Assembly (NCBI GenBank): GCA_003693705.1
Contig: RBZT01000855.1
Location: 186,001-250,000, forward strand
Direction: 5' to 3'
DNA from: Polymyxa betae
Taxonomy: Eukaryota; Endomyxa; Phytomyxea; Plasmodiophorida; Plasmodiophoridae
Length of the DNA stretch: 64,000 nucleotides
Part shown: positions 18,256-61,880 of the stretch, one piece after another
How the letters are laid out: each line of letters opens with the position of its first letter
How positions within the stretch are numbered: the first letter of the stretch is position 1
The notes under the pieces: model-generated
Told to the model about the DNA's origin: nothing
What the model saw: the letters and a program-made list of their open reading frames with translations, nothing else
Databases searched by the model: none
Translations under genes and position numbers: made by a program

Positions 18256-21200
18256 ATGGGTAGCGGAATCAGCAAGAGTTCGCAATTGAAAGCGCTCGAA
18301 AAACGATGTAGGTCTTAGTCGATATCATTGCTGCTTATATCATTTCTGGCTATTGAATCTCGGTTCTGCATAAACCGAGGTTTGGGTGAGGGCCTCGTCT
18401 CTCTGTTTCATTTCAAATCTCTCTGTGCTCCGTTCTGATCTTCGTCAAGTCGATGCCGAGGAGTTGTTCACGCTGCGTCAGACGTTTACCGAATTGGCGG
18501 CCCGGAACCGAGGCAAGTTCATCGATCGGGAGATGTTCAAACTCGTGTTCCGGATGCCCGGCATCCTATCAGATCGACTTTTCAACGCGTTCGACCTGAA
18601 TCAGAGCGGCATGATCGACTATGAATCATTTATCACTGGCTTAGCGTTGTTTGTGAGAGGATCTTTTGACGAAAGGGTCAGACTGGGTTCTAAATTCGTT
18701 TTTTTTTTACTTGCTCATTTACTTTTTTTTTCCTACGGTTTGCTTGCAGCCTCTGTTTTCTGTTTGATAATGCTCGGTGTATTCTTATCAGGAGCGATTC
18801 TTTTCTCGTTAAACCGACAGTTCCGTTGTTAGTATTTCTCGCTTACATTTTCGTATTAGATTTCTATTGGTTAATCGACTTCAGAGTGCTAATCTCGCTT
18901 CTATCATAGATCAATTTCCTTTTCCGAATATACGATATTGACCAGAACGGTCGGATAACGAGGGAGGGCCTGACCACTGTTTTGAACTCGGTTCTATTTG
19001 CTGGCTATTTGATTATCTCGTCGCAGAGCGACCCTGAGCGTATATCTGATAGCATCTCAGACGTTATTAGCAAAAGGGTAATCACTCATATCAATCACTG
19101 TCGTTCATCGTTTTTCTCATTTTTGTGTCTCGACAGACCAAAAAACTGGTGGACGACGCTTTCCGCTTTCAGGAGCAAGATGCTTTGACAAAGGATCAGT
19201 TCCGTCGATGGGTATGTCACATTTTGGCAACGTTTAAACAAGCTCATCTGTTGAGAGTCGATTTTGTGCTCGAATAATTTACAATCTCATCTTTCAGGCT
19301 CATGACAATAGCGTCGAAGTCGAATACGCCCTTGATGTTCTCATCCGAGATCGTAACACTTTGCGACGAAAGGGTAACTGTAAGCCAGGCTCTTCGTCTG
19401 ATCTTGGCGGTCGTCTCACATTTGACGGTGTAAGGCTTTCATCGTTTGAGGCGTTATGATTCAAACTCACATTGCCGTAAATGCAGATTTTGAGGTCGCC
19501 TTCTCGGTCATCTTCGTCGCATAGTCCGAATCGTGAACTTTCAACTTCACAGCCGTCATTTCAGCTGTCGCAAGGAGGTTCCTTCCAAGAGATAATAGAT
19601 ACTGGATGCGTTCAGATCCGTCGTCCTGATATGACTGATTATAAAGACAAGTATGTTTCTTGCCCGGATTTCCGTTTGAACGTTTTCTCGGTTGTCCCAT
19701 GATTCTCATTGATCTCCAGACCGGGCGTTCAGATCACTTGCAAGTCCTGCGATTATGACATTTCCGCCTGTTATTGTGCCTACTGTGGATCACCTCTAAA
19801 GTCGCGTGATCGCTTTCTGAGCTGCCCCTACTGTGTTTCCGAAAATCGGCTCGTTCAATGCGATTTTTGTATGAATTGTGGATCTGACCTGCACCTTTTC
19901 AAAACGGATTCTGACGAAGCCGAACCAATTTATGGCGAGATGTAAGTTTGATCAAGTTTCAGGATCTTTCCCTACTTTTGCTGTTGTCCGTATTGCAATT
20001 TTATCCATTTTTCCTGTCACATCTGCACCGGTTTTCACACTATTCTTCTGTTTCAGATCGATAGAAGATGCTTACGGCGGAACCGAAGGCTATTTATGGA
20101 AACTCGGCCAGCATCTGAAGATTTCGGTAGCGTTCATTCTTGATCCGAACTGAAGCCCTTCTGATCCTGCTGACAGACTTGGAGGCAACGCTGGTGCAAA
20201 CTTACTGGGAATTTTCTGTATACGTATCGTTCCGAGGCGGCGTGCAAGCCGGCCGGCATGATCTGCCTTGAAGACGCCCATATCGAGCGTGTTGATCATA
20301 GCAAAGTGCACACGCGCATGAAGAACGGCGTGCAGATCTATTCGCCGATCAACCAACTCAGACGCTGCTTCTATGCTGCAACCGAGTCAGATCGCGAAAG
20401 ATGGTTCAAGGCTTTGCGGAAGGCGGCCCATCAGTTTTGTTTCGAAGTATGCCTTTTGCTACCAATGTTGATATGATGCATCTTACGATTGAGTTGTAGG
20501 ATTTCTACACGATCATTGGAAAGATCGGCGAGGGCAAATTCGCCAATGTTTACTCGTGCACACGAAAGCGAAACAACCAGAAATGTGCTGTCAAAGTCAT
20601 CAACAAATACGGTGAGATTGTTGATTTTTATCTGTCTCGAATTGCTTTATGAACGTTATTATTTTGTCATTGTGCGGACTCTGTCACGCTCAGTGAATGC
20701 TAATTTCTCTGTGGTTTGTTTTTCGGTTTGATTTCTAATTGATAAATCCCTAATCATCAATATCTTCCTCATGAATTGTCTAGATGTCAGACAAAGCGAT
20801 CGCGATAGTTTGCGTACCGAGATCGCTGTCCTGCAGTTTGTCCATCATCCGAATGTTGTTCACCTGAAGAATGTTTTTGAGACACGGTCTCGGATCTATA
20901 TCGTCATGTCGCTTGTTGAAGGTCAGATATTATGATATGTGGTTTTCATTTTGTCGTCAATTATTACAATTCTGGTGATTCTGAGCAATTTTGCATTTGA
21001 CAAACTGCTTAGGTGGTGATCTGTTCCAGCGCCTAAAAGAGCATGGTCGCTACAGTGAAAACGAAGCCCGGAAAGTTATGGATCAGCTTCTGCGTGCCCT
21101 TCTCTATCTGCACGAACGTGGCATCGTTCATCGAGACTTAAAACCCGAAAATATCATGTTAGCTAACAAAAATTCGTTAACTGATATCCAGGTAAATGGC

Positions 21201-21857
21201 TTTCACTCGTTGGTGTCACTTTTTTCTAATGTCTACTGGGAACAGTTGGTGGATTTCGGTCTGAGCAAATTCATTGCCCCAGAAGAAAAAATGAACCAGG
21301 CATGCGGCACTCTATCGTATTTAGCTCCAGAAGTCCTTTTGCGTCAAGGATATGGTCGGGAGGTTGACATCTGGAGCGCTGGTGTCATCCTGTACGTCAT
21401 GCTGTCCTGTCATTTTCCGTTTCCAGATAAAGACATGAAGGCGTACCTAGACAAGGTATATTTTGTTAACTGATTCGAGAGTTTCTTCATTATCTACTGA
21501 CTTATGAAAATTAACCTACGATGATAGGCTATCAATGCAGATTTCTCATTCAGCCATCAAGAATGGGAGACTTCATCCGATGAAGCGAAATCGCTGATTC
21601 GAAAAATGCTAAACCCCAACCCGAGAGCCCGAATCACCGTCAAACAATCGCTCGAACACCCATGGATGCAATATGGAATGGCAGCAAATGGTTCTTTAAC
21701 AGTTAAAACCGAGCCTTCTGATTTGGATCGGTGTAAAGATATACGCTCTCTTTCAAACTCTCAAAACAGTGGATCTTCCTCTAGTAGATCAATTGTAAAA
21801 GGTCCAATACTTCAACAGCTACGTGTAGCTTCAGCAATCGTGGATGCGGATCGCTGA
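18256..21857 (+). CDS. Myristoylatable EF-hand / zinc-ribbon / PH / CAMK-type protein kinase
   Basis: A 52-nt first exon encodes MGSGISKSSQLKALEKR, an N-myristoylation consensus; a 142-nt intron joins it to FDAEELFTLRQTF. Calcineurin-B-like EF-hands follow (FDLNQSGMIDYESF; IYDQNGRITREGL). A Ser-rich linker leads to a cysteine-rich double zinc ribbon (CKSCDYDISACYCAYCG...CPYC...CDFCMNCG), a PH domain (GYLWKLGQHLK...TWRQRWCKL...ERWFKALRKA) and a complete kinase domain: GEGKFANVYS, AVKVIN, HRDLKPEN, DFGLSK, GTLSYLAPE, DIWSAGVIL. The tail is short. It most resembles CAMK/CDPK kinases, but the EF-hands precede the kinase, opposite to CDPKs. Predicted role: Ca2+- and phosphoinositide-responsive kinase at a membrane. 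About a dozen introns, one of 233 nt. Domain calls are strong; regulation is inferred. Confidence 0.87.
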
Positions 21858-21974
21858 AATAAATTTATTACCTATTGATGTAATACCTAAGTATTTATCA
21901 AATAAAGAAAATTTTCGGTGAAAGCAGCGAAAAAGATCGAGGCATAACATCATATGAAAGAGAATTTATTCCAC

Positions 21975-32906: not shown

Positions 32907-34921
32907 CCACTTTCCCGTTTTTTATTGCTGAATATTTTTGTCATCGCTTTGGTAAATCTTCCCATGAATGTTTTCTTTTTATGTTTATCCATGGTCGCCT
33001 TTGTAGCCAAATTAATCTCAGCCATTACCATCTTGGCGAAGTTGACGTCTTTTTCTGCTAGACGATGGTCATGGTACGACCCGTGTATAATGCTGTGCAT
33101 CCATGCATTAGATAAACTGGATTTATGTGATGACTTTAACGTACGCTAAGAACATGTGACCCAGAAGTAATTCAATCGAAGCGAAGAAGGCGAAAGCCAG
33201 CAGTGGCCCCAAGAAGACTTTTTCATAGTTAAATTCAGCAATGAAATGCACAAGACAATGTTCTTACAATTGGAATGCTGCACCTCTTCAAAACTGAGTT
33301 TGCCTGCGCCAAAAATGGACCCATACTACAATTCAGATTAGCGAAATTTGTGTTTTCAGATCAGTATCATACAGCAGTTAAAAACGAGTCCGTCATCGAA
33401 CGGAAATGCGGAATGTCAACATTGAACGCCAAGAAGAACGCGTGTACGTAGCCCATCATAACGATTGCGAAAAATACAACGAACATCAGTAAATTTCGGC
33501 TGTAACCAGATTAGAGCTCTTTATATAACAGAATCCTTTACAAACCTAGCTCCCAAAAATACTCTCTTGATCATACGTAAGCCGTTCGACATTGTGAACA
33601 AATATTTCGCTATCTGTTAGAGCAATCAGATCACAGCTTATCAACGAAATGCAGTGGGACCGTACCCGCATCCAAGAGATGATAATGACGACACTCGTCA
33701 TTCGACGAATGTGGATCTCGAAGGCAGCGAGGTCATGGAAGTCGACATATGGCTCAGTTCCACAAGCAGATGTCAGCTTCCAGGCTATGATATCATGTGC
33801 AATACGAGCAATGATGACAGCCAGAATCAACACAAATTTCACAATGTCCATCAGATTCCAACCGGACTTGAAGAATGTCTTCCCGTATAATCTGAAGCTC
33901 TTGAACATGATCCAGACCATGTACAAATAAAATATAACGAATATGATCTCGAAAAAAGCAATAACGAGATTCGATATGCGATCGTAAGGAAATGCATCAA
34001 TAACATGAAAGTGGGACGTCGTCTCAATGCCTCCATATGGCGGAAGTTCAAAGAGTAAGCGAATGGCACAAATTCGGTTCCCGTTGAGATTATACAGCGA
34101 AAAGTCGAGCAATACAGCGACAGTATAGGCATCGATCCAGGTGTTCAGCTTGAGAGATTCAATAAGGTTATGATTGGCTACTTCGTCTAACGTTAGAAAC
34201 GCATTATAGCCACCAATACCATATTCATGATTTGCAGCAGGTAGCCACTCATTGATTTCTTTTTGATACTGATCTGTCCAGACGAAAACACCATTGGGCC
34301 CGAATGGATTCTGGTCAAGATTGCTCTCCAATACCAATGGTGGACAGGAATCTGGGGTCTGTGTGAACATTGATTTGTAGAGATCGGGGCACGGCCCTGG
34401 TTTAACACGTTTTTGCTGCAACAGAACCGAGCCCAGTAGATAGCTGCCATCATAGCTCTTAGTCCCATTATCTGGCCGCAGGCCGTTCGTAGCAAAATAG
34501 TCCAGATATCGCCAGAGTTGCGAGATTGTGTTCAAAATTGTGAAAGCCGGGACGATCTCATTATTGGCATCAATCCAATCATATGACGAAGTGAAGCGCC
34601 GTGAGATAACATCTCCCCAATGGTACTTTACTGAATGATTTTGATAAATCTAACATCGATTCGCGTTCCAAACGTACCATAATCGTAATTTCGCGCATAT
34701 GCAAACACTGAAAGAACAATAACGAACACGAGATATCGAATTAGTTCCATTAGCCGCTCTCGGTGAGTTAATCGAACCTCGCCATCTGCTGTGGCCAGAG
34801 TCGACCCCGATGTGTGCTTGCTTGTGGCAGAGGTTTCATTGCTGCCCCTAGAAGTGGCCGCTTTACTGCCATGCCGACTGTTACCATGGCCAGATTCCTC
34901 GCTGACCTTCTGCCTGGACAT
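32903..34921 (-). CDS. Polycystin-2 (PKD2/TRPP)-type cation channel
   Basis: Start MSRQKVSEESG at 34921. A Ser/Thr-rich N-terminus leads to a first membrane helix (ELIRYLVFVIVLS). A large extracellular loop follows, typical of polycystins (NTISQLWRYLDYFATNG; RICAIRLLFELPPYGGIETT). Next come further helices (NLVIAFFEIIFVIFYLYMVW, DIVKFVLILAVIIARIAHD), VVIIISWMR-IAKYLFTMS, LLMFVVFFAIVMMGYVHAFF and the pore/S6 region ending GHMFLAIIHGSYHD, equivalent to LNMFLAIINDTY. The tail is basic (FMGRFTKAMTKIF). About seven introns. Polycystins are Ca2+-permeable channels, often on flagella. The tail is short, with no EF-hand or coiled coil seen. TAA is at 32903-32905. Confidence 0.9.
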
Positions 34922-36140
34922 ATCAAGACCTCATGGTTCTGTGACGAAATCGATCGGACTCTACGGCCTACTTCCGCTTGGCAGGGGATTCGTGCTGTGC
35001 TTGAAAGCAACGCGCCAGATTCATCATAGCGAGTGTAATCATGGGAATGTGCTTTGAAGCAACCTACAACCATCATTCAGCCCAGAGTCAGGATGGGGGT
35101 TGCGCTGTTCATTGGCTTCTTGCAGATAAATGTTGGTCCAAGTCGCTCTTTGATTGTTGCGTCCTGCTGTCGTCTGACCAGTCTAACGACCTATATTGGT
35201 AATCATCCAGCGCCAAAACGGGTCTTAAATGCGCTCCATTCCAGTTTTTGATCGACAACCTCATCCTTTCTGCAACGGCGCGACTCTTTGCAAGCCATTA
35301 CCTAGTTCAATATTCTATCCACGTTTTTTAGTTTCAAACCGTTCAACGAAAACACAGATATCCTAGCTGACATTGGACCTTTATTTCTAAGCTGGAAAGG
35401 AATGATTTCTTATCCAACTAACAACTGTTACTGAATTTGGTCTTCCCGAACTCGCAGAATGGATTGCCAAGTCGTATATTTGCTGATGACCTCCATTTGG
35501 GATTTTTAGCGATGTTACTTCCACTGTCCTCATTTTTTCTATTCTCGACTCCGATATGGGAACATTCATTTTATTGTTACTCGTCGTGACTTCAAATTAT
35601 CAATGTATAGGGTGTTCATAGCTGCAAATGCAACGCGAAATCTGTTACCAGACCAGATGAAACCGAAAGCAACTTAGATAGAGTCTGTACATACCCTCTG
35701 TAAAATACCTAATACATAAGAAGGCAGTTGATACAACTATGTAAACGCGAGCAAAATTAGTAAAGATGCAAACAATCACGAATCTATTTACAGAAAGCGA
35801 ATGTAATCCCCAACGACCATGATAACTTATAATGTGATTCTGTAGAGATATCTGCTTATTGAGAAATGGACTACCGTATGACTAATGAGTTATGAGCGAC
35901 CATATGGCCTATTCTGGAGAATAACATGAAAAAGCAGGAAGATCAGCGAAAATTCGAGTAAAAATTGGGACAAAGTTCTGGCCAGAAAATGACGCAGTCC
36001 GAGATATAGTGCGCGGATCTGCCAGATTTCTGATTTTAAAGCAGCTCTGTGTCTGTCATCAAGCGAAGGTCGTCGTCTCTCCGATTTAGGGACAGCGATT
36101 TCATTCACTCTAACGTCAAGCACAGAATTCAGACTTTTCC
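34922..36140. other. Intergenic, nothing recognised
   Basis: A divergent 1.2-kb spacer, among the longest here. Only short overlapping frames (such as 36147-35890 minus and 35569-35387 minus) without motifs. Likely the promoters of the channel and the zinc-finger gene; no repeats or RNA signature seen. Confidence 0.5.
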
Positions 36141-37472
36141 ATGGCAACCGTGACCGCAGACGCTCCCGCCCCGGCTTCTCAGACGCCCAGCCGTCGTCGC
36201 TCGCGTCCAGACGACGCCGACGACACCGTCAGTAAGCAGGCGCGCGTTTCACACCCGTTCAAAGTCGAAGAAGACGATCTGAAATGCGTCGTCTGTATGG
36301 AGTTTCCTGATGGGAAAATCTTCCAATGCCCCAATGGCCATCTGCTTTGTGAGGAATGTCACGAGCGTGTTATCGAGGCATATCAATGCGTCTGCCCAAC
36401 CTGTCGGGCGAAGCTGTCTCGTGACCGCCCGTCCAGAAATCGGTTCGCTGAATCGGTCCTGTCGACGATTGTCGTTCCGTGCCCAAACTCTGGCTGCAAC
36501 GAGCGCCTACCGTTCGGCAAGATTCGCGCTCATGCTACCGACGCCTGTTCGTTCAGAATTGTCACCTGTAAATTCTCTCCTCTCGGTTGCGATTGGAAGG
36601 ATATCAATTCCAAGCTGAAAGTGCACGAAAGGGAATGTACGTTGAAGCAGAAATCTGCCAAGTCGATACTGAAGCGGGTGCTGGAACGGTCCGCGCAGCA
36701 GAAGGCGGAAGAACGACGAAAGAAGCACGAGATGCAATCGCAGTTAAAGATCGCCGAGTTGCTGTCATCAAGGTGTCGCGATATCATCATTCGCGAGGTC
36801 GTTATTGAACGCGACACCATTTGCGACATGATTGCTAGTAAACCGTTTAAAGCGTTTGGGGCGACCTTGTCGCTCGAGTTGAACGATATCAATCCTTCGT
36901 CGTCCTCGTCATCGTCAAGTCCTGATACGAACGGTGTCTCGAACTCCTTGTCAGATGTCGCTGTTGTTAATGAGGTGAACAACAACAACAACAACAACGA
37001 GTCCGCAACGCCGAGCAATGAGAAGAAGGTCGGCCTGTTCCTGGTACAGCGATCGAGGCGCGCCAAGCGATTGCGGATGACAGCATTCCTGCTAAAAGGC
37101 CCCGACTCCGAAATCCCCAACTTCACGCCCGTTATCGTACCGGTGCAATTCTCTCGCAACAAGCGAACCAGCGATCCGTTCCCTCTGCCGTTAACCAAGG
37201 ACCAGGCCAAGGACATGTTCGAGATGGGCTCTCTGACGGTTCGTATCGGGCTAATCGATCGCAGGCGGGGCCTGTCCCGATCGTTCTCGAACGATCTCTC
37301 GGCGCGTGGCGGCGATGACGACTCCGATTCGTATTCGTCGTCGTCAGAAGACGACGGGATCGTCTCCGAAGATCCCGACCTGCATTATTACTCGACATCG
37401 AGCGATGATGATGATTGTATACATACGTATATGGATGATGATGACAATGGTGCTGAGTTAACCTTGTATTAA
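36141..37472 (+). CDS. CYHR1/ZTRAF1-like RING and TRAF-type zinc-finger protein
   Basis: A single 443-codon exon, unusual here. An N-terminal RING is visible (CVVCMEFPDGKIFQCPNGHLLCEECH...CPTCRAKL). TRAF/SIAH-type fingers follow (CPNSGCNERLPFGKIRAHATDAC; CKFSPLGCDWKDINSKLKVH). A beta-rich C-terminal domain has the CYHR1-like LRMTAFLLKGPDSEIPNFTP and a DPFPLPLTKDQAKDMF stretch. Low-complexity tracts interrupt it (poly-Ser about 36897-36920, poly-Asn about 36978-37000), and the C-terminus is Asp/Ser-rich. The RING suggests E3 ligase activity; the domain order matches animal CYHR1. GC content is visibly higher than in its neighbours. Function in protists unknown. Confidence 0.8.
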   Translation: MATVTADAPAPASQTPSRRRSRPDDADDTVSKQARVSHPFKVEEDDLKCVVCMEFPDGKIFQCPNGHLLCEECHERVIEAYQCVCPTCRAKLSRDRPSRNRFAESVLSTIVVPCPNSGCNERLPFGKIRAHATDACSFRIVTCKFSPLGCDWKDINSKLKVHERECTLKQKSAKSILKRVLERSAQQKAEERRKKHEMQSQLKIAELLSSRCRDIIIREVVIERDTICDMIASKPFKAFGATLSLELNDINPSSSSSSSSPDTNGVSNSLSDVAVVNEVNNNNNNNESATPSNEKKVGLFLVQRSRRAKRLRMTAFLLKGPDSEIPNFTPVIVPVQFSRNKRTSDPFPLPLTKDQAKDMFEMGSLTVRIGLIDRRRGLSRSFSNDLSARGGDDDSDSYSSSSEDDGIVSEDPDLHYYSTSSDDDDCIHTYMDDDDNGAELTLY

Positions 37473-52425: not shown

Positions 52426-52650
52426 TCATAATCCATGATTGATAAGTCAAGTAAACTTTCTTACCTATTTTGTATGCTTGAAAATGTGAAATGTCACAAC
52501 GTTGACCGATCAGTAAGATACAGTAGCCAAAGGTTTGTTATTTCGGTGTTTGTAACCATCTTGAACTTTCAACGAAATCCTACAATCGAAGCAATGCCGA
52601 CGAAGTGCGTAGCGGGGGTCCATGTCTCTTTGTAAAATCTCTGTTCGTCG

Positions 52651-55600
52651 ATGCTGGATACTCTTAGAGATGCTCTTGACAGTCGCCTGCTATCATCTGG
52701 TCGAGAAACCGTCGATCAGCTCTCCAGAAATATTTTAAAAGCAGCCAGTCCGGCTGATGCGCATGCAATTGTCGACAGCGTTTCATTCTTCGCGTTGCAT
52801 CTGCCTCACAAATATGATTCGCTGACAACTGGTGTTGCCAGACTTATCTTCAACCTAATTTCCAGTGCAATTTTTGTCGAGGACGATCTAAATCGTTTAA
52901 TTTCTGTCCATGTATCTATGCTGAATTTAATCAACGATCCGAAGTTGATATCGTCATCGTCGAGTCTACTTGCTCAGCTGCTTCGCCACATGCCGGTGCT
53001 ATTAAACTCTTACTCTCTCTGTATCTTCTCTGTAGATTTATCAAGCAATTTTGTTGCTCTCACTGCTGCAATTCACTACGAGCCGTTCTTAGACAAGTAT
53101 CGCCTCAAAGTAATTGAGGCATATTGCGATCACATTGTTGGTGGGAAACAGAAAGCGCCTCCGACTGTTTACAAAAATGGTTTCATTCCGCTGTATTCTA
53201 CTCTAAATTCAGATGAAATGGACAAACTGGTCGTACCTGTCGTGGACCGGATGCTGAAACGCGCTCAGGGAAGCACCATTCAAATTATTGTGCCGCTATT
53301 CGAGAATCTCAAACTTTTCCCGATTGACAGCTATATTCCGCTGCTGAAATCTGTAATCGGTTTGAATTTACGCTCCCCGGAGGAGCGTAGAAGGAAGGCT
53401 GCTTCTCAATTATTTCGAACATTAACTTTGAAAGCAAGGAATAGCGACCTGCTTCAATCACTGATATCTGAGATTGCAGACCATTTAAGTGGGAAGAAGG
53501 ACGGATTCATTGCAAACATTGAGGAACGACTTAATGTTATCAACGCACTTGGCTCTGTAACCCATTCTCCCATAATACATGATGTTGGGGCAAACGTTGT
53601 CGCCCTTCTTCAAGAACATTCAAAACGCGAAACTCACGATGAAGGTTTGCTTTTTGGATGCATTTTTTCTGCTACTGTTAACGTCTTGTAGGTCGCATTG
53701 CTGTTCTTGAGTTGCTTTCGCAATTCGTGCCGCTATTGCCGCTTCCAATTCCAAATGTGCTTGTATCCTATATTGAACAAACCATTATAAAGACCGGGAC
53801 GTCTAAACCTGACACTATTGTTGGGCATTTGATTGTGCTGTTATCCATTATCCGGAAGTCCAAGGACTCGGTTAGTTCAAATATGCTCTCGGCTGTCGAG
53901 AAGATCTTGAATGAAAATTTCAACAAATCTCAGCTCCGCACTGCATCTCTCGCATGTACCACTGCTAATTATGAGCTTCGATTGAGCTAACGTTTTTTTG
54001 AAGGTCTGGCAATTTTATGTCAACTGGGCAACGATGAAGTAGTGTCGAAATTTCTTTTAACTGCTGAAGCGTCGTTTGCCACGTCATTTAAAAGCATAAT
54101 TCAAGGTTCTGCCAGAGAATCGTTTTTGCTTGGAACAATCATTAATTCGCTGTTCGCAAATCGTATTGGCGCAGGTGTGTCTTAATGTTATCCTCATGGG
54201 AATTCTCAGTCATGTTTGCTAGTTTGGTCTGCAAACGGTTCTTACCGAAATGTATTTGATGCTATAATTGCATTGTTGGTGAGACCTGAAAACGCTGTAA
54301 ACATATCTGCCTTTCACTTGATTCGAGGTATAATCGCTTGTTCCTGCTTCCAGCCACTCTGACACTCCGTCAGATTTTCCACAATTAGCTCCTGACATCA
54401 TTCAATCGTTTTACCGACTGCTCTTCACTAGAATATATCCAGAGAGTGCTACGAAGCCGACTCCGTTTCAGTTATTGGCAATACTTCGTTACGTCGCTAC
54501 TATTCAGTCATTAGATACAGATTCGTTCTTGACTGCTGCTCTTATTTGCCATGTCAGGTTTTTCTGTTTATCTACTGTTATGGAGTCTCATTTGATTACA
54601 GCATCCGGCCTTACGGAGGTCAGCTCGGGAGAAGATCAACAGCTCGCCTTGGGATCATTTTTATCGGAAACAGTCGAAAAACGTGGCTTTGCTGTTTGCT
54701 AAAAGCATCGATACCATTGTTGAACTAGTTTTTTCTGGTACATGTTTGCTTGGTTCAGACCAGGACTGCTTTCTTGCTGGTTCGAATTTCATCGCAACTG
54801 TCATCGACACCAGTCCATCGTGCTATGAACCCGTCTTTAATCAATTAAAAAAGCACTTAGACTGCTCGGCTTTGTCAGCCCTGTCTGAAACAGATCTGGC
54901 TATTTTCTCGGTTCCAGATGGACAGGTCTGGTCTTCTGCATTACCTGGTCTATCATCTCTGATTTTGCCAAGATTGCCAAAGTATCATCATCATCCACCT
55001 CCCCTGTCAATGTGACACCAAGAGTTGGGCGCTCTAAGCAGATGTCGGATGAGGAATGGGCCGCTAAAGTAAATCCGTTTTTGTTGCTTAATCGGCATTT
55101 CTAATTGGAAAAGGTCCAATCTGAGATCGATAGCAAGAAAGGGTTAATGAAGAAAGACGAAGAGTTGGTTGAAGTCAAGAGACAGAACGAAATTCGTGCA
55201 CGCATTTCTTCGCTGCTTTTGCCTATTCAATGCTCTTTGGAGGCAATTCGGTTTTTGTGCCTCCGGCTGCAAAAGTCGTTCACCGAAACGATACTGTCTT
55301 CTCAGTATTGTTTCCTGTTGGATGCGATCTGCCAATTGGCTCCTTTTTCTTTAATAACTGCCCAAGTCAGACAAACACTTGCCAGTATTGCTAATACCGG
55401 TATTAATCTATTCCCTTTGCTGTTCCTCTTTCGTTTGTCGCTCATTCTTGTTGTATGGATAGGGCTCGAAGGTCGAATTAGCTCTCAGCATGGCGATCTT
55501 ATCGCTTACGCTGTTGCTGTTTCATCTCAGTTTGGGTCGAAGACTTTCCAGCACGATTCTCCTGTCCTCAAAACTGTATTCGAGATATTCTGCGCTCGTT

Positions 55601-58600
55601 TCTTTTGTTCTGACCATCGATCAGGTAAGTGATGCTGTCCATGCACTCGTTCAAGGTTCGGTGGAGTCGCGGCTGTTCTCCGGCTCTACTATTCGCTTTT
55701 TAATGCCTCTATTCGAAGCTGCTGCTGCGTGCCTTTCGTTATCTACTTCGATGCAGTGCATTTCAGTGCTGACTGCACATTCAACGGTCTCTGATCTCCC
55801 TGTGGACCGTGTTTTGGATCTATCATTAGAGATTCTGAAAGTTCCTCGAGGTGCACCGGATGCAAATACGCTTCTTCACGGTGTCAGTCCCTATTTAAAA
55901 CCGATCCATATTGACGCTCTTATTGACGATCGTGGTCTGCTTTCTTCAAGTCCTTTTTCTCGCAAGGTTGCTCTTGAAACTTTGGCGCTTTCATCATTGC
56001 TTCACTCTCCTAATTCTCCAGAGCTGGTTGCAAAACTGTTCTTAATGACCCACGATGACGATGCTGAACAAAATCTAAAAAGTGATGCCGAGCGTATCTG
56101 GCATCAGTTCGGATTCAAGTACATTCCAATTATTCATATTCTGACCCCGCTGCTCTCCCACCCGACTCCTTGGGTCCGTCGCACTGCTGCTATTAGCTTC
56201 GGCTATGCTATTCGCCGGCAAGACGATGCTGATCTGCAGATTGCTTCGCTCTTAAATCTGATCAAAAACAATCCTGATGAGATGGTCCAATCGCAGTTCG
56301 ACATTGATGCCCGAGAAATTGGTTTGATGAGTTTCAGTTTTGGCTGTATTCTGCTCACCGTATTCTAGATCGATCTGCAACGAGGGTGTCAGCTTTTATT
56401 GCTCTTGGTTATGCCGCTCCAGCTCTGTCCCAAGACAGTATAATGAATTCCGTTCAGTAATATTCTGTAGTATCAACTCTCAGTTCGTGCTTAACAAGTT
56501 TTTTCCAGGTTTATTCTTGAAACAGGATTTCTCGATAAAAAACCTGCTGTTTGGAATGCAGCACTGCAAGCTGGATTGTCAATCATCAGTACAGATCTGG
56601 ACGCATCGTCTGTCCGTGATCTTCAGTTGCTCCTTGATAAGGGTTTGTCATTGGGTATCGATAGTGGTATGTTGTCCTGTCGGCAGCTCTTTATACTTTC
56701 CTTATCGTTATTCAGTATCCGAAGGCGCTATCGTTCTGATTGGCCGCCTGGCTCAGTTTTTAGATCCGAAAACTGACTCTGAACAAGTTAAAGCCGTTTT
56801 TTCACGCCTGATTGATGCTCTTCGAATTCCGTAAGTTTCTTCACGTGTCCTCTTGTCTTCCTTTGTCATCTTATGGCCAGGTCGTATTCCGTTCAATGTG
56901 CTGTTGCCGAGTGTCTTGTCCCGTTGGCAGGAATGCTTCAGGATGATGAACAGAAGCAAGAAGCGTTCAACCGTTTGATTGAAACCGTTTCGGGTGGGAA
57001 AACCTATGGCGACAGAAAAGGCGCTGCTCTTGGTCTGGCAGGGCTTGTTAAAGGACTTCGGATTTCGAGCTTGAAAAAGTCATTTTCTGCCACTTTTCGA
57101 CCGTTTGCTAAAGGATGCCTCAGGTACGGAGTACTGAGCGCCCTCACCACGATGGCGAAGGATAAGCGATCTCATACAAAGCAAGGTGCCTTGTTCTGTT
57201 ATGAAGCACTTTTTTCGGCTCTTGGGAAGCGATTCGAGCCATATCTGCCGCATTTGATTCCCGATCTGCTCGCTTCTTTTGGGGACCCGGTTAGCGAAGT
57301 TCGCGAAGCCACTCAAGAGGTGTGCCAACTGCTTGCCATTTTTGACTGTTTAGTGGGTGATGTAATACGTTTTGTTTAGGCTACTCGTGTCGTTATGGCT
57401 CATGTGACAGCTCAGGGTGTCAAGATGATGTTGCCTCATATTCTTAAGGTTTACCGCAACACCGCCTGTGTCTAACCCTATATTCAGTGTTCTCAGGCTC
57501 TTGACGACGATCAATGGCGAACCAAAGTCGAATCGATTGGTATCTCGTTCTGTTTCTCCTAAATTAAGGTTTGGTGAATGGGGGATTTCAGGAATGTTGG
57601 GCTCAATGGCGTTTTGCGCTCCCCGGCAACTTTGTGCTTTCCTTCCGACTGTTGTACCTCGACTTACTCGCTGTTTGGCCGATCCACATCCAAAAGTTCA
57701 AGAAGGCGGTAAAAAGGCCCTGGCTGAAATTGGTTCAGTGGTCAGTTTTTTTCATTTCGAAGCTGACTCAAATTCAACTGTTTTCAGATTCGAAACCCAG
57801 AAATTCAGTCTTTGGTGCCTTCTTTGTTAGCCGCTTTGATAGATCCGTCTTCTAGCACTCGGGACGCCTTACAACAACTTCTTGATACTTCGTTCGTCAA
57901 TTCTGTCGATGCTCCCTCGTTGGCGCTGATCATCCCCATTGTAAAACGAGGCTTACATGACCGATCGCCTTCCGTTAAACGAATGGTGATGTCTCGCTTA
58001 CAGCCGATTTTTTGCTTATATGTTATCGAATTAGGCCGCATTAATTGTCGGTACTATTTGCGAATTCCTTCGCGATGTTTCTGCGATTTTACCTTACACC
58101 AAGTCCCTGCTGGATGATCTACAAAAAGTTCTAATCGATCCCATTCCTGACGTTCGGGCTTCCAGTGCCCGAGCAATGGGTCTCCTCTTCAAAGGTGTCG
58201 GTGAAGTACATTTCCCGAACTTAATCGGTGCGGTAACGACCTCGTTGTGGTATTCATCTAACTGTTGCTTTAGATTGGCTTCTTCAGATGCTCTACACGA
58301 ATACCTCCAGTGTTGAAAGAAATGGTGGTGCTCAGGTATTTCACCACAAGTCAGACGCTGTTTCTCTTCTAAGCGCGTTGTCAGGGTTTAGCTCAGGTGC
58401 TCGCAGCACGTGGGCTTTCAGCGCTTTCTGACTATTTGGATGTCATCCTGGAGGGCGCTGGTCATAACGAATCTAATGTAAGGGAAGCGTATATGGAGAT
58501 TTGGGTTTATCTTCCAAGGGCCTTTGGCGGCCCGCTTCACATCTATCTGGAAAGGGCTCTGCCAGTTATTATCAATGTATGTGTCTTAGTATTTTCCCAA

Positions 58601-61600
58601 CGTTGCTGTTGGAGTTGCCAAATACGGTTTAGGGTCTTGCAGATGATAAAGAAGCGGTACGCTCCATGTCGCTATCCGCAGGAAAGTCTTTGATTACTGC
58701 TTACGGTGCCGACCATTTCGTTATCTTCCTGCCGTTTTTGCAAGAAAGCTTACGACATGAAGTTTGGCGCGTCCGAGAACACACCTGCGTTCTCATCGGC
58801 GACGTTCTCGCCCGAATTTGCGGAGCCCAGGTTTGAACAAAATTTTAAGGCTATGACAACCATTAAGGGCTTTAATTTTTTGCTTATAGGTCAGCATCGT
58901 CGCCAGTGACCATATCGAATTCGATATGGATGACCAGCGAAAGGTTGAAAATGAAGAGGTTGGCATCTCTATGTTTGCGACTTCTAGATTATTTTAAGAA
59001 TGTCTTACAGGCGGTTCTATCTGCACTCGGACGTTCTTCTCGTGATCGCTTGTTTTCTGATCTATTCATTGTCCAAGCTGATAGCGCTAGCAATGTTCAG
59101 CAGACATCCTGGCTGGTTTGGAAGTCTTTAGTCGCTAACACGAATCGGATGTTGGCGGATATCATGCCCGTCCTAATGGAAAATGTCATCAAGTCTCTTT
59201 CCGACCCCGATTTCGAGCGTCGAACGGCCGCAAGCAAATCTCTTGGATCAATGTCTGTATCGTGCTATTAGTTTTATGCGATTGTTTGCTTCTTTGTATG
59301 ATCACCATTTTTTTGTTCTTTCTGGTATCATTTCCACCATATGCTCAATCTTGCTTTAGGGTTCAACGCAGCGGTGAGATTGTTCTCCCCATCATCATCC
59401 CTATCTTAGAGGGAGGTTTATCCTCCCCATCTGCTGCAATTCGTCAAGGTGTCTGTTTCGGTATGAGCGAAGTTATGGCGTCTGCATCTAAAGACAGCAT
59501 CACTGCCTACATGTCCGCTCTGATTCCGGCAATCCGCTCTGCGCTCTGCGATGAAAGCGAAATGGTTCGTGTTGCGGCCGCCCGATCGTTTGAAACTTTG
59601 GTTCGTAACACTGGTCCACGAGCCGTTGCGGATATTGTTCCCCCGCTCGTCAAAGAACTTTCGGAGGATTTTGCTGTCAACTCGCTGCTGATTTTGCAGG
59701 GACTACGTCAGGTTCTTCAGGTTCGAAGCAGTCCTGTTTTGAATCATCTCATTCCCGCTGTGGTAAGTCTTTTTCGAGTTTGCCTTCTGCTTGGCTTATC
59801 TTTGAACCAGATTTCGAGACCGATAACACCGTTTTATGCGAAGGCGCTGGCGTCATTATCCGATGTTTATGGGCCAGCTATCGATATGCATATCGATACG
59901 GTGATGCCTTGGTATCTTGATGGCATTGCCAATACACAGGATCCGAACACATATGAGATATTGGCTGATGCAGCCACTTCTTTCCTTCTAGGTCTTCATA
60001 AAGATGTAAAATAGTCTCTGTCATGCTTACTTTGCCCTAATTCTGGTTTGTAGGCGACCCATTCCGTTGTGCAGTCTCTATGCTCGTCGCTGGATGAACG
60101 TCGGCGGAATGCATCGACATCACTGATGCTTATTTCTACCAAACTTCTTGGCTCTTTCTGCTCCTCGTCTCAATCCGATTACTCTTCTGAGTTGGAGTAT
60201 GACATTCTACGCTCTTGTATCATGATAATGATTCTTTAAATAGATCTATTTTGGGTTCGCTACTGTCGCTGTTGATCTCTGCTGAGGACGATCTTCAAAA
60301 TGCAGCCGCGGAAAGCTTACTTCAGGTGACAACGACGAGCAATAAGGTAATATTTGTTTTTAAAACTGCTGGTTTCCGACATTATGAAAGGATGAGCTCG
60401 TCTGTCATCTTGTGTACGTTCGGCAGTCCATCCAACGTTTAGCTCGAGATTGTGCTCGCAAGTCAAAAGCTGAACAGGTTTGCTATCCAAAGTCGTATTC
60501 TTCGATTGTTCATCAGTGAAACAGATTGTGATTCCTGGTCTTTGTCAGCCCTCGGGAATTGCTGCTATCTTGCCGATCTATCAGTACGGGTTATTGAATG
60601 GTTCACCTGAGCAACGACAGCAAGCGGCTACTGCTCTTGGTGATCTGATCACTTATACCACACCATTTGCTCTCAAGCCTTACGTCATCAAGATTACTGG
60701 TCCGATTCGTTTGTCCCTTTATTTTATCGTTGCTCATGTACTCGATTAGGCCCATTGATCCGTATTGTCGGTGATCGTTTCCCATCCTCGGTTAAGGCCG
60801 CCATTCTGACAACTTTGGGCTTGCTTCTGGACAAAGCGGGACCTTTCATGAAACCATTCGTACCTCAACTTCAAGCGACATTCACTAAAAGTCTGAGAGA
60901 TCCCGATTCGTCCGTCCGCTCGAGTGCTGCACCGGCTCTGGCTTCTCTCTTGGTGTTGGCGCCCAAAAAGGTCGACCCTCTGGTGCAAGAAATCGTCTCT
61001 GCATATTTTGAAGATAATGGGCCGGTCTCATATACGATGGTCTCAGCGTTATGCGCTCTGTTATCTACTGTGGTATGAAGAGTGCTGTTAATCATATCCA
61101 TCTTAGGGGTTTTTTAGGGATCCGAGATATCTCCTGAGCTTTATGGTTCTGTACAAGACGCTTTAGTGTCGGCTTTGTCGAAAGACTCAGATTCTTGTCG
61201 ATCAACCGCTGCAACTGGGTTAGGACATCTGTCCGGGATTGTATCTGATCCTGAATGTCGCCAGCTGTTTGAGCGCGTTTCATCTCCTTCGGTATCAAGT
61301 GATTGGGAGGTCGATATCGTTCTTGTCTCGTACCAACTCCACTGATAACTTTTAACAGGCGCGTCATGGCTTAGCTTTAGCTTGTGCTGCTATCATTCGT
61401 CGAGCTGGAGCCAAATTGGATGGCAAATCTTGTCTAATGGCGGTGCAATCCTCACTTCGTGATACCGATTCTACTGTCAGACAGGCTGGATTAATTATGG
61501 GAGCTGCATTTTCGGTTGTATCGCAGGGTGAAACAGTCGATCTTGCTCTGTCTTCAATGATCGACCTTTCACGTGATCGTAATGCTGATGTTCGTATGGA

Positions 61601-61880
61601 ATTCTCCAACCAAATCAACTTCCTGGGCAAATCGCATCCGAACGTGCTTCTGACACGAACCGATGTTCTGAACCAAGTCGTTAATGTTCTGCTTGCGTTG
61701 ATCAACGATGGCAGTCAATCTGTGTCGTTGGCCTCACAGAATGCATTGGGTCACACTTTGCAGCTTCATCGCGGTCGAACTCACACGTTCGATTCTTATC
61801 TGAAGACTGTCGATGTCAACACATCGGCAGCGCTGGATAAGTTTGCCAGAAGGTCGCGTCTATTTCGGTCAGCAGCCTGA
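52651..61880 (+). CDS. GCN1: GCN1, ribosome-associated activator of GCN2
   Basis: A 9.2-kb gene of some 25 introns (about 2600 residues), starting [17 protein letters not shown]. It is HEAT repeats throughout: [21 protein letters not shown] early, and [20 protein letters not shown] near 56.1 kb. The eEF3-related repeats follow: [75 protein letters not shown], and [20 protein letters not shown] at 57.7 kb. Later repeats include [15 protein letters not shown] and [20 protein letters not shown]. The C-terminal GCN2/RWD-binding region is near 60.5-61.8 kb ([41 protein letters not shown]). GCN1 binds collided ribosomes and activates the eIF2alpha kinase GCN2. No frameshift needed. Confidence 0.95.

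What the first reader, a model, noticed from the sequence alone, without database searches (positions are those of the whole stretch)
18256..21857. Calcium kinase with reversed domain order: myristoyl-EF hands-zinc ribbon-PH-CAMK kinase
CDPKs place the EF-hands after the kinase. Here they come first, followed by a Cys-rich double zinc ribbon, a PH domain and a CAMK-type kinase in one polypeptide. A tiny first exon adds an MGSGIS myristoylation site. This would combine lipid anchoring, Ca2+ sensing and phosphoinositide reading upstream of the catalytic domain. I do not know a described kinase family with this exact order.
Basis: partly seen in the sequence, partly recalled or inferred. Interest (0 to 1): 0.8.

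Follow-up and report, generated by a model that had tools for sequence, protein, structure and literature searches.

The report
EF-hand, zinc-ribbon, PH-domain protein kinase
A real protist gene for a probably membrane-targeted protein kinase whose calcium-sensor-like part comes before the kinase; this order is already known from malaria-type parasites and a water mould, but this version adds a zinc-ribbon-like module and its calcium sites look worn out.

Summary
A 14-exon gene (18256-21857, +) encodes 782 residues: MGSGISK start, calcineurin-B/NCS-like EF-hand module, four-CxxC zinc-ribbon-like segment, PH domain, CAMK-type kinase with intact catalytic motifs. A relative (P0001, 71-73% identical over residues 1-460) on a 1725-nt contig, too short for comparable introns, supports all eight junctions of exons 1-9. 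P0035 carries the whole order in one 783-aa frame.

EF-hands, PH, kinase is published for apicomplexan CDPK7 (PMC7909640, PMC3227725) and Phytophthora PITG_08008 (PMC3019232); 27 of the 135 database proteins listed to me show it. Calcium sensing is doubtful: both recognisable EF loops lack an acidic residue at position 12, and a recalled PROSITE EF-hand pattern matches nowhere in the protein, while 18 of 26 relatives have a match.

I found no description of the zinc-ribbon version: 6 of 36 family rows, plus three other loci with all four parts in this genome, where the family is expanded and includes probable pseudokinases. Verdict: new variant of a known kind, modest interest.

The parts
18256..18307 (+). 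exon 1: MGSGISKSSQLKALEKR, N-myristoylation-type start
   Evidence: co-linear with P0001 MGGGLTKRSQLKALEKRFDAEEL
18450..18676 (+). exon 2: EF-hand module, first half; loop DLNQSGMIDYES (aa 66-77), Ser at position 12
18910..19077 (+). exon 3: EF-hand module, loop DIDQNGRITREG (aa 102-113), Gly at position 12
19137..19211 (+). exon 4: last, degenerate EF-hand of the module
   Evidence: model of P0001
19298..19429 (+). exon 5: end of EF module and linker
19487..19650 (+). exon 6: Ser-rich linker
   Evidence: the matching stretch of the P0001 model has pLDDT under 50
19720..19941 (+). exon 7: zinc-ribbon-like segment, CxxC starting at aa 280, 292, 308 and 320/323
   Evidence: DZR sub-threshold
20057..20126 (+). 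exon 8: start of PH domain
20177..20446 (+). exon 9: rest of PH domain (PH = aa 357-454)
   Evidence: 2.7e-13; nearest solved sequences cytohesin/GRP1
20500..20611 (+). exon 10: kinase N-lobe, GEGKFANV and AVKVI
20784..20921 (+). exon 11: kinase N-lobe
21013..21191 (+). exon 12: kinase catalytic loop HRDLKPEN
21246..21455 (+). exon 13: DFG, activation segment, CGTLSYLAPE
21528..21857 (+). exon 14: kinase C-lobe end, Ser-rich tail without Pfam match, stop TGA; AATAAA follows at 21858

Best explanation
The gene encodes a CAMK-group Ser/Thr kinase, probably active, that works like CDPK7/PITG_08008: a lipid-recruited membrane kinase. SHOWN from sequence: a myristoylation-type N-terminus, an NCS/calcineurin-B-like EF-hand module, a four-CxxC segment, a PH domain abutting a kinase with its catalytic motifs intact, and a family with this order. 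INFERRED: myristate plus the PH domain put the kinase on a phosphoinositide-bearing membrane. The PH domain, about eight residues from the kinase, probably holds it inactive until lipid binds. The zinc ribbon is a structural or partner-binding spacer. The EF module acts mainly as a Ca2+-independent or low-affinity docking/structural module, not as a classic CDPK calcium switch.
For: Gene model: 14 GT-AG exons, one frame. P0001 supports the eight junctions of exons 1-9. P0035, P0054, P0059 and P0069 carry EF, zinc ribbon, PH and kinase in one protein. Domains. EF module like CnB/NCS by sequence and, in the model of P0001, by fold. PH closest to cytohesin/GRP1, and 1fhx (GRP1 PH with inositol tetrakisphosphate) is among the Foldseek hits of the P0001 model. 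Kinase motifs GEGKFANV, AVKVI, HRDLKPEN, DFG and CGTL..APE are intact. The two EF loops end in Ser and Gly at position 12, and no recalled-PROSITE EF loop occurs anywhere in the 782 residues. Recombinant PITG_08008 gave a negative 45Ca result (PMC3019232 passages). PH-dependent localisation of PfCDPK7 and PIP binding of TgCDPK7 are reported in passages of PMC7909640.
Against: TgCDPK7 showed a Ca2+-dependent thermal shift (PMC9436416 passages), so a kinase of this kind can respond to Ca2+. 18 of 26 relatives keep at least one canonical loop. The loop at 102-113 departs from the pattern only at position 12. The recalled PH lipid motif K-Xn-[KR]-x-R is present in the window protein (K362...R373-x-R375) but broken in P0001 (Ser for the first Arg; alignment), so lipid specificity is uncertain. 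Autoinhibition by the PH domain, zinc binding and myristoylation are untested. The structure models are of relatives (P0001, P0035), with pLDDT of only 50-69 over the zinc ribbon. P0001, P0035 and P0059 give no Pfam DZR hit up to E = 0.05.
Confidence: 0.68

Rival explanations
1. A true Ca2+-activated kinase: the EF module binds Ca2+ despite imperfect loops and relieves inhibition.
For: The loop DIDQNGRITREG keeps acidic or polar residues at 1, 3, 5 and 9. TgCDPK7 showed a Ca2+-dependent thermal shift. The fold is that of real Ca2+ sensors. 18 of 26 relatives have a canonical loop.
Against: Position 12 is Ser or Gly in the two recognisable loops, and both residues are the same in P0001. 0 of 12 loops match the recalled pattern in the window gene plus five paralogues, two loops tested in each. 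PITG_08008 did not bind 45Ca.
Confidence: 0.22
2. Two adjacent genes: an EF/zinc-ribbon/PH protein and a separate kinase, with the exon 9-10 join wrong.
For: P0001 ends 27 residues after the point where exon 9 ends, by reading on. The kinase part is not covered by P0001.
Against: Phase, splice sites and spacing fit. P0035 encodes EF, zinc ribbon, PH and kinase in one 783-aa frame on a 2432-nt contig. 27 of the 135 proteins listed have EF, PH and kinase in one chain. PH and kinase exons also sit side by side in paralogues L029-L032 and L038.
Confidence: 0.04
3. A genuinely undescribed kinase architecture with no known relatives.
For: I found no description of the zinc ribbon in this setting.
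Against: EF-EF-PH-kinase is published, and zinc-ribbon versions are already in sequence databases.
Confidence: 0.03

Closest known systems
Apicomplexan CDPK7 (PfCDPK7, TgCDPK7)
   Same: N-terminal EF-hands, PH domain directly before a CAMK-group kinase towards the C-terminus; a putative myristoylation motif is reported for TgCDPK7 (passages of PMC7909640; table in PMC3227725)
   Different: CDPK7 is longer (2265 and 1346 aa in that table) with long linkers; the same table shows no EF-hand for TgCDPK7; 'zinc' does not occur in the main text of PMC7909640; no CDPK7 sequence was available here for direct alignment
Phytophthora infestans PITG_08008
   Same: N-terminal EF-hands weakly matching consensus, PH between EF and kinase, structure confirmed by RT-PCR, 45Ca binding negative (passages of PMC3019232)
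   Different: no zinc ribbon mentioned in the passages seen; sequence not available here for alignment
Canonical CDPKs (plant, ciliate, apicomplexan)
   Same: CAMK-group kinase with EF-hands in one chain
   Different: their EF-hands follow the kinase with a junction domain between (passage); here EF-hands come first and the kinase is followed only by a Ser-rich tail without Pfam match
Protein kinase D (recalled comparison; a 2023 review names CDPK7 as the closest ortholog to PKD1/2, passage of PMC10543664)
   Same: zinc-binding module, then PH, then CAMK kinase, in that order
   Different: PKD has C1 domains (recalled) and no EF module; the window protein gave no Pfam match to C1 up to E = 1

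Membership tests
EF-PH-kinase (CDPK7 / PITG_08008 type) | EF-hand module N-terminal to the kinase in one chain | tested here: met
EF-PH-kinase (CDPK7 / PITG_08008 type) | PH domain immediately before the kinase | tested here: met
   PH 357-454, Pkinase 463-720
EF-PH-kinase (CDPK7 / PITG_08008 type) | kinase domain groups with other PH-kinases rather than RSK or CDPK kinases | tested here: inconclusive
   54-row tree: window sister to P0035 (84) in a 9-row group (93); the whole PH family is one side of a branch, but with support of only 66 and a long window branch
EF-PH-kinase (CDPK7 / PITG_08008 type) | orthology to PfCDPK7, TgCDPK7 or PITG_08008 themselves | not testable with these tools
   I had no way to fetch their sequences by name; no row listed in the three protein searches bears such a name, but most rows bear none, names are cut short, and one search listed 120 of 5402 hits
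EF-PH-kinase (CDPK7 / PITG_08008 type) | binding to phosphoinositides through the PH domain | not testable with these tools
   needs a binding assay
Canonical CDPK | calmodulin-like EF-hands C-terminal to the kinase | tested here: not met
   residues 720-782 match no Pfam family up to E = 1 and the recalled EF pattern nowhere; EF-hands lie before the kinase
Ca2+-binding EF-hand protein | at least one canonical 12-residue loop with acidic position 12 | tested here: not met
   0 matches to the recalled PROSITE pattern in the 782 residues; binding itself untested
N-myristoylated protein | Met-Gly start fitting G-{EDRKHPFYW}-x2-[STAGCN]-{P} (recalled pattern) | tested here: met
   window and P0001, P0035, P0054, P0059, P0069 all fit; modification itself untested
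Double zinc ribbon (Pfam DZR) | score above Pfam's cut-off | tested here: not met
   E = 0.16, 12.6 bits against cut-off 27.3; four CxxC pairs present

The most novel reading that the evidence does not exclude
A zinc-ribbon-bearing branch of EF-PH-kinases has, in this lineage, turned a calcium-sensor fold into a calcium-independent docking module and then multiplied, with catalytically dead sister kinases, into a private membrane-signalling family within a 24-Mb genome.
Probability: 0.3. Interest if true: 0.45.

Novelty: new variant of a known kind. Interest (0 to 1): 0.3.

Why it matters
CDPK7 is described as critical for the development of Plasmodium falciparum and Toxoplasma gondii, yet whether calcium controls it is stated to be unclear (passages of PMC7909640). 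A relative whose loops lack the key acidic residue, in a genome with several paralogues and probable pseudokinases, offers a natural comparison for asking what the EF module does apart from binding calcium. The zinc ribbon adds a further module for which I found no description in this family.

Tried and rejected
Two separate genes: rejected for the reasons given under rivals. Unknown architecture: rejected after the paper reading. Apicomplexan origin: the inner-membrane-complex family PF12314 gave 0 of 1 genomes; of 14 control genomes, all prokaryotic as far as named, only Caulobacter rang, so this is weak. Oomycete origin: elicitin PF00964 gave nothing, and nothing rang in any control, so it shows nothing. 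Cercozoan or foraminiferan origin: five tandem polyubiquitin repeats on contig C318 start exactly 228 nt apart (a sixth follows after 280 nt), leaving no room for the extra junction residue recalled for those groups; suggestive only. The 18S rRNA search failed four times for technical reasons. No listed row named CDPK7 or PITG_08008 appeared in the three protein searches; only the best 120 of 5402 hits were listed, and only the 7988 candidates sharing most words were scored, so absences there mean little. The VIA list spans mainly residues 6-188 and 349-456 and barely tests the zinc ribbon, so no fold statement is made for it. Paper searches that led nowhere on the zinc ribbon.

Full report
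WHAT IS THERE. The window lies at G000:C267:186001-250000 of a 24.4-Mb, 541-contig assembly whose gene here has spliceosomal-type introns. Fourteen exons with GT-AG introns of 50-233 nt splice to one frame of 782 codons that ends in TGA at 21857, with AATAAA directly after it. The 52-nt first exon gives MGSGISKSSQLKALEKR.

IS THE MODEL RIGHT? The search with residues 1-460 found one protein above threshold among 5422 candidates, P0001 (485 aa, E = 2.8e-217, 71% identical). Aligned directly it is 73% identical over 462 columns and runs through all eight junctions of exons 1-9, tiny first exon included. Its contig is 1725 nt. Its reading frame takes 1455 nt, and the window gene's first eight introns total 811 nt, so the contig is best read as spliced RNA. 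P0001 stops 27 residues after the end of exon 9, which I read as a retained intron, so it does not cover the PH-kinase join. That join is supported by P0035: 783 aa on a 2432-nt contig, with EF, zinc ribbon, PH and kinase in one chain. Of the 135 proteins listed by the three searches, 27 had EF, PH and kinase in that order, 8 had PH and kinase without a detected EF, 3 had EF and kinase without PH, P0001 had EF, zinc ribbon and PH only, and 96 had none of EF, zinc ribbon or PH detected.

CALCIUM. The two clear loops are DLNQSGMIDYES and DIDQNGRITREG; position 12, normally Glu or Asp, is Ser and Gly. The PROSITE EF-hand pattern used was recalled. With it the window protein has no match in its 782 residues. 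In the first 330 residues of 26 relatives, 18 have at least one match and 8 have none (P0001, P0035, P0059, P0088, P0103, P0110, P0118, P0123; P0110 is cut short at the front). In five paralogous loci of this genome 0 of 10 loops match; only the two clearest loops of each were tested, read. Published facts point both ways: recombinant PITG_08008 did not bind 45Ca (passages), while TgCDPK7 shifted its melting with Ca2+ (passages). My reading is that this protein is at most a weak sensor.

FAMILY AND GENOME. A tree of 54 kinase domains (window, 35 PH-family rows, 18 others picked from 99) puts the window beside P0035 (84) in a nine-row group (93). That group holds the five zinc-ribbon kinases of the tree and P0043, whose front is missing, but also three rows without the ribbon (P0057, P0088, P0110). 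The PH family as a whole is one side of a branch with support of only 66, and the window branch is long. Of 13 stretches fetched from this genome, L030, L031 and L032 show EF, zinc ribbon, PH and kinase in order; L029 has EF, PH and kinase; L038 has zinc ribbon, PH and kinase; L033 has EF and zinc ribbon only; L039 and L040 have the zinc ribbon only. L034-L037 and L041 have PH plus a diverged kinase; an EF match was found in L035, L037 and L041, and one search gave weak EF matches inside the stretches of L034 and L036 as well. In those five DFG reads DIG, and no catalytic-loop motif D[LI]KxEN occurs in any of three frames of the stretch, whereas the same scan finds it in 5 of 5 other kinase loci, L029-L032 and L038. 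They look like pseudokinases; a motif split by an intron could be missed.

WHAT IS KNOWN. Passages of PMC7909640 describe CDPK7 as having two N-terminal EF-hands, a long linker, a PH domain beside a C-terminal kinase and, in TgCDPK7, a putative myristoylation motif, with TgCDPK7 binding PI4P and PI(4,5)P2. A table in PMC3227725 (section 7 read) writes PfCDPK7 as EF.EF-PH.KD but TgCDPK7 as PH-KD without EF; passages of PMC5371900 likewise report that SnCDPK7 lacks EF-hands. Passages of PMC3019232 describe P. infestans PITG_08008 as EF, PH, kinase, confirmed by RT-PCR and at that date called undescribed for any kinase; another sentence of the same paper counts it among proteins with C-terminal EF-hands. 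So the claim of an unknown order fails. I could not align these published proteins directly, so 'same kind' rests on architecture and on the reports, not on a tree.

HOW IT PROBABLY WORKS. Shown by sequence: the modules and their order, intact catalytic motifs, degenerate loops, a myristoylation-type start. Inferred: membrane recruitment by myristate and PH, inhibition by the adjoining PH domain until lipid binds, and an EF module that mainly holds partners or the chain itself. The lipid-binding motif I looked for (recalled) is present in the window protein but not fully in P0001, so lipid choice is open.

VERDICT. A sound gene and a good domain reading, but a known architecture. What I did not find described is the zinc-ribbon version; the loss of canonical calcium loops and the local expansion with probable pseudokinases come. 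New variant of a known kind; interest 0.3.

Noticed in passing
L034, L035, L036, L037, L041 (own-genome contigs C99, C99, C86, C381, C181): Paralogues with a PH domain and a diverged kinase in which DFG reads DIG and no D[LI]KxEN catalytic loop was found (5 of 5): probable pseudokinases.
   Followed up: partly
L033:1076-2453 (contig C123): EF module plus zinc ribbon without any PH or kinase match within about 5 kb downstream, possibly a stand-alone sensor-like relative.
   Followed up: partly
L039:3191-3361 and L040:2450-2614: Isolated copies of the same zinc-ribbon-like segment with no other family domain detected in the fetched stretch.
   Followed up: no
window 33551-34649 (-): Polycystin cation channel exon (Polycystin_dom 1.8e-22, PKD_channel 2.6e-10).
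   Followed up: no
window 52636-61877 (+): Successive frames matching GCN1 N-terminal, EF3-type HEAT and GCN1 C-terminal models, probably one large GCN1 gene.
   Followed up: no
window 36114-37469 (+): 452-aa open frame with a Sina-type RING (1.4e-09) and TRAF-type zinc finger (1.1e-07).
   Followed up: no
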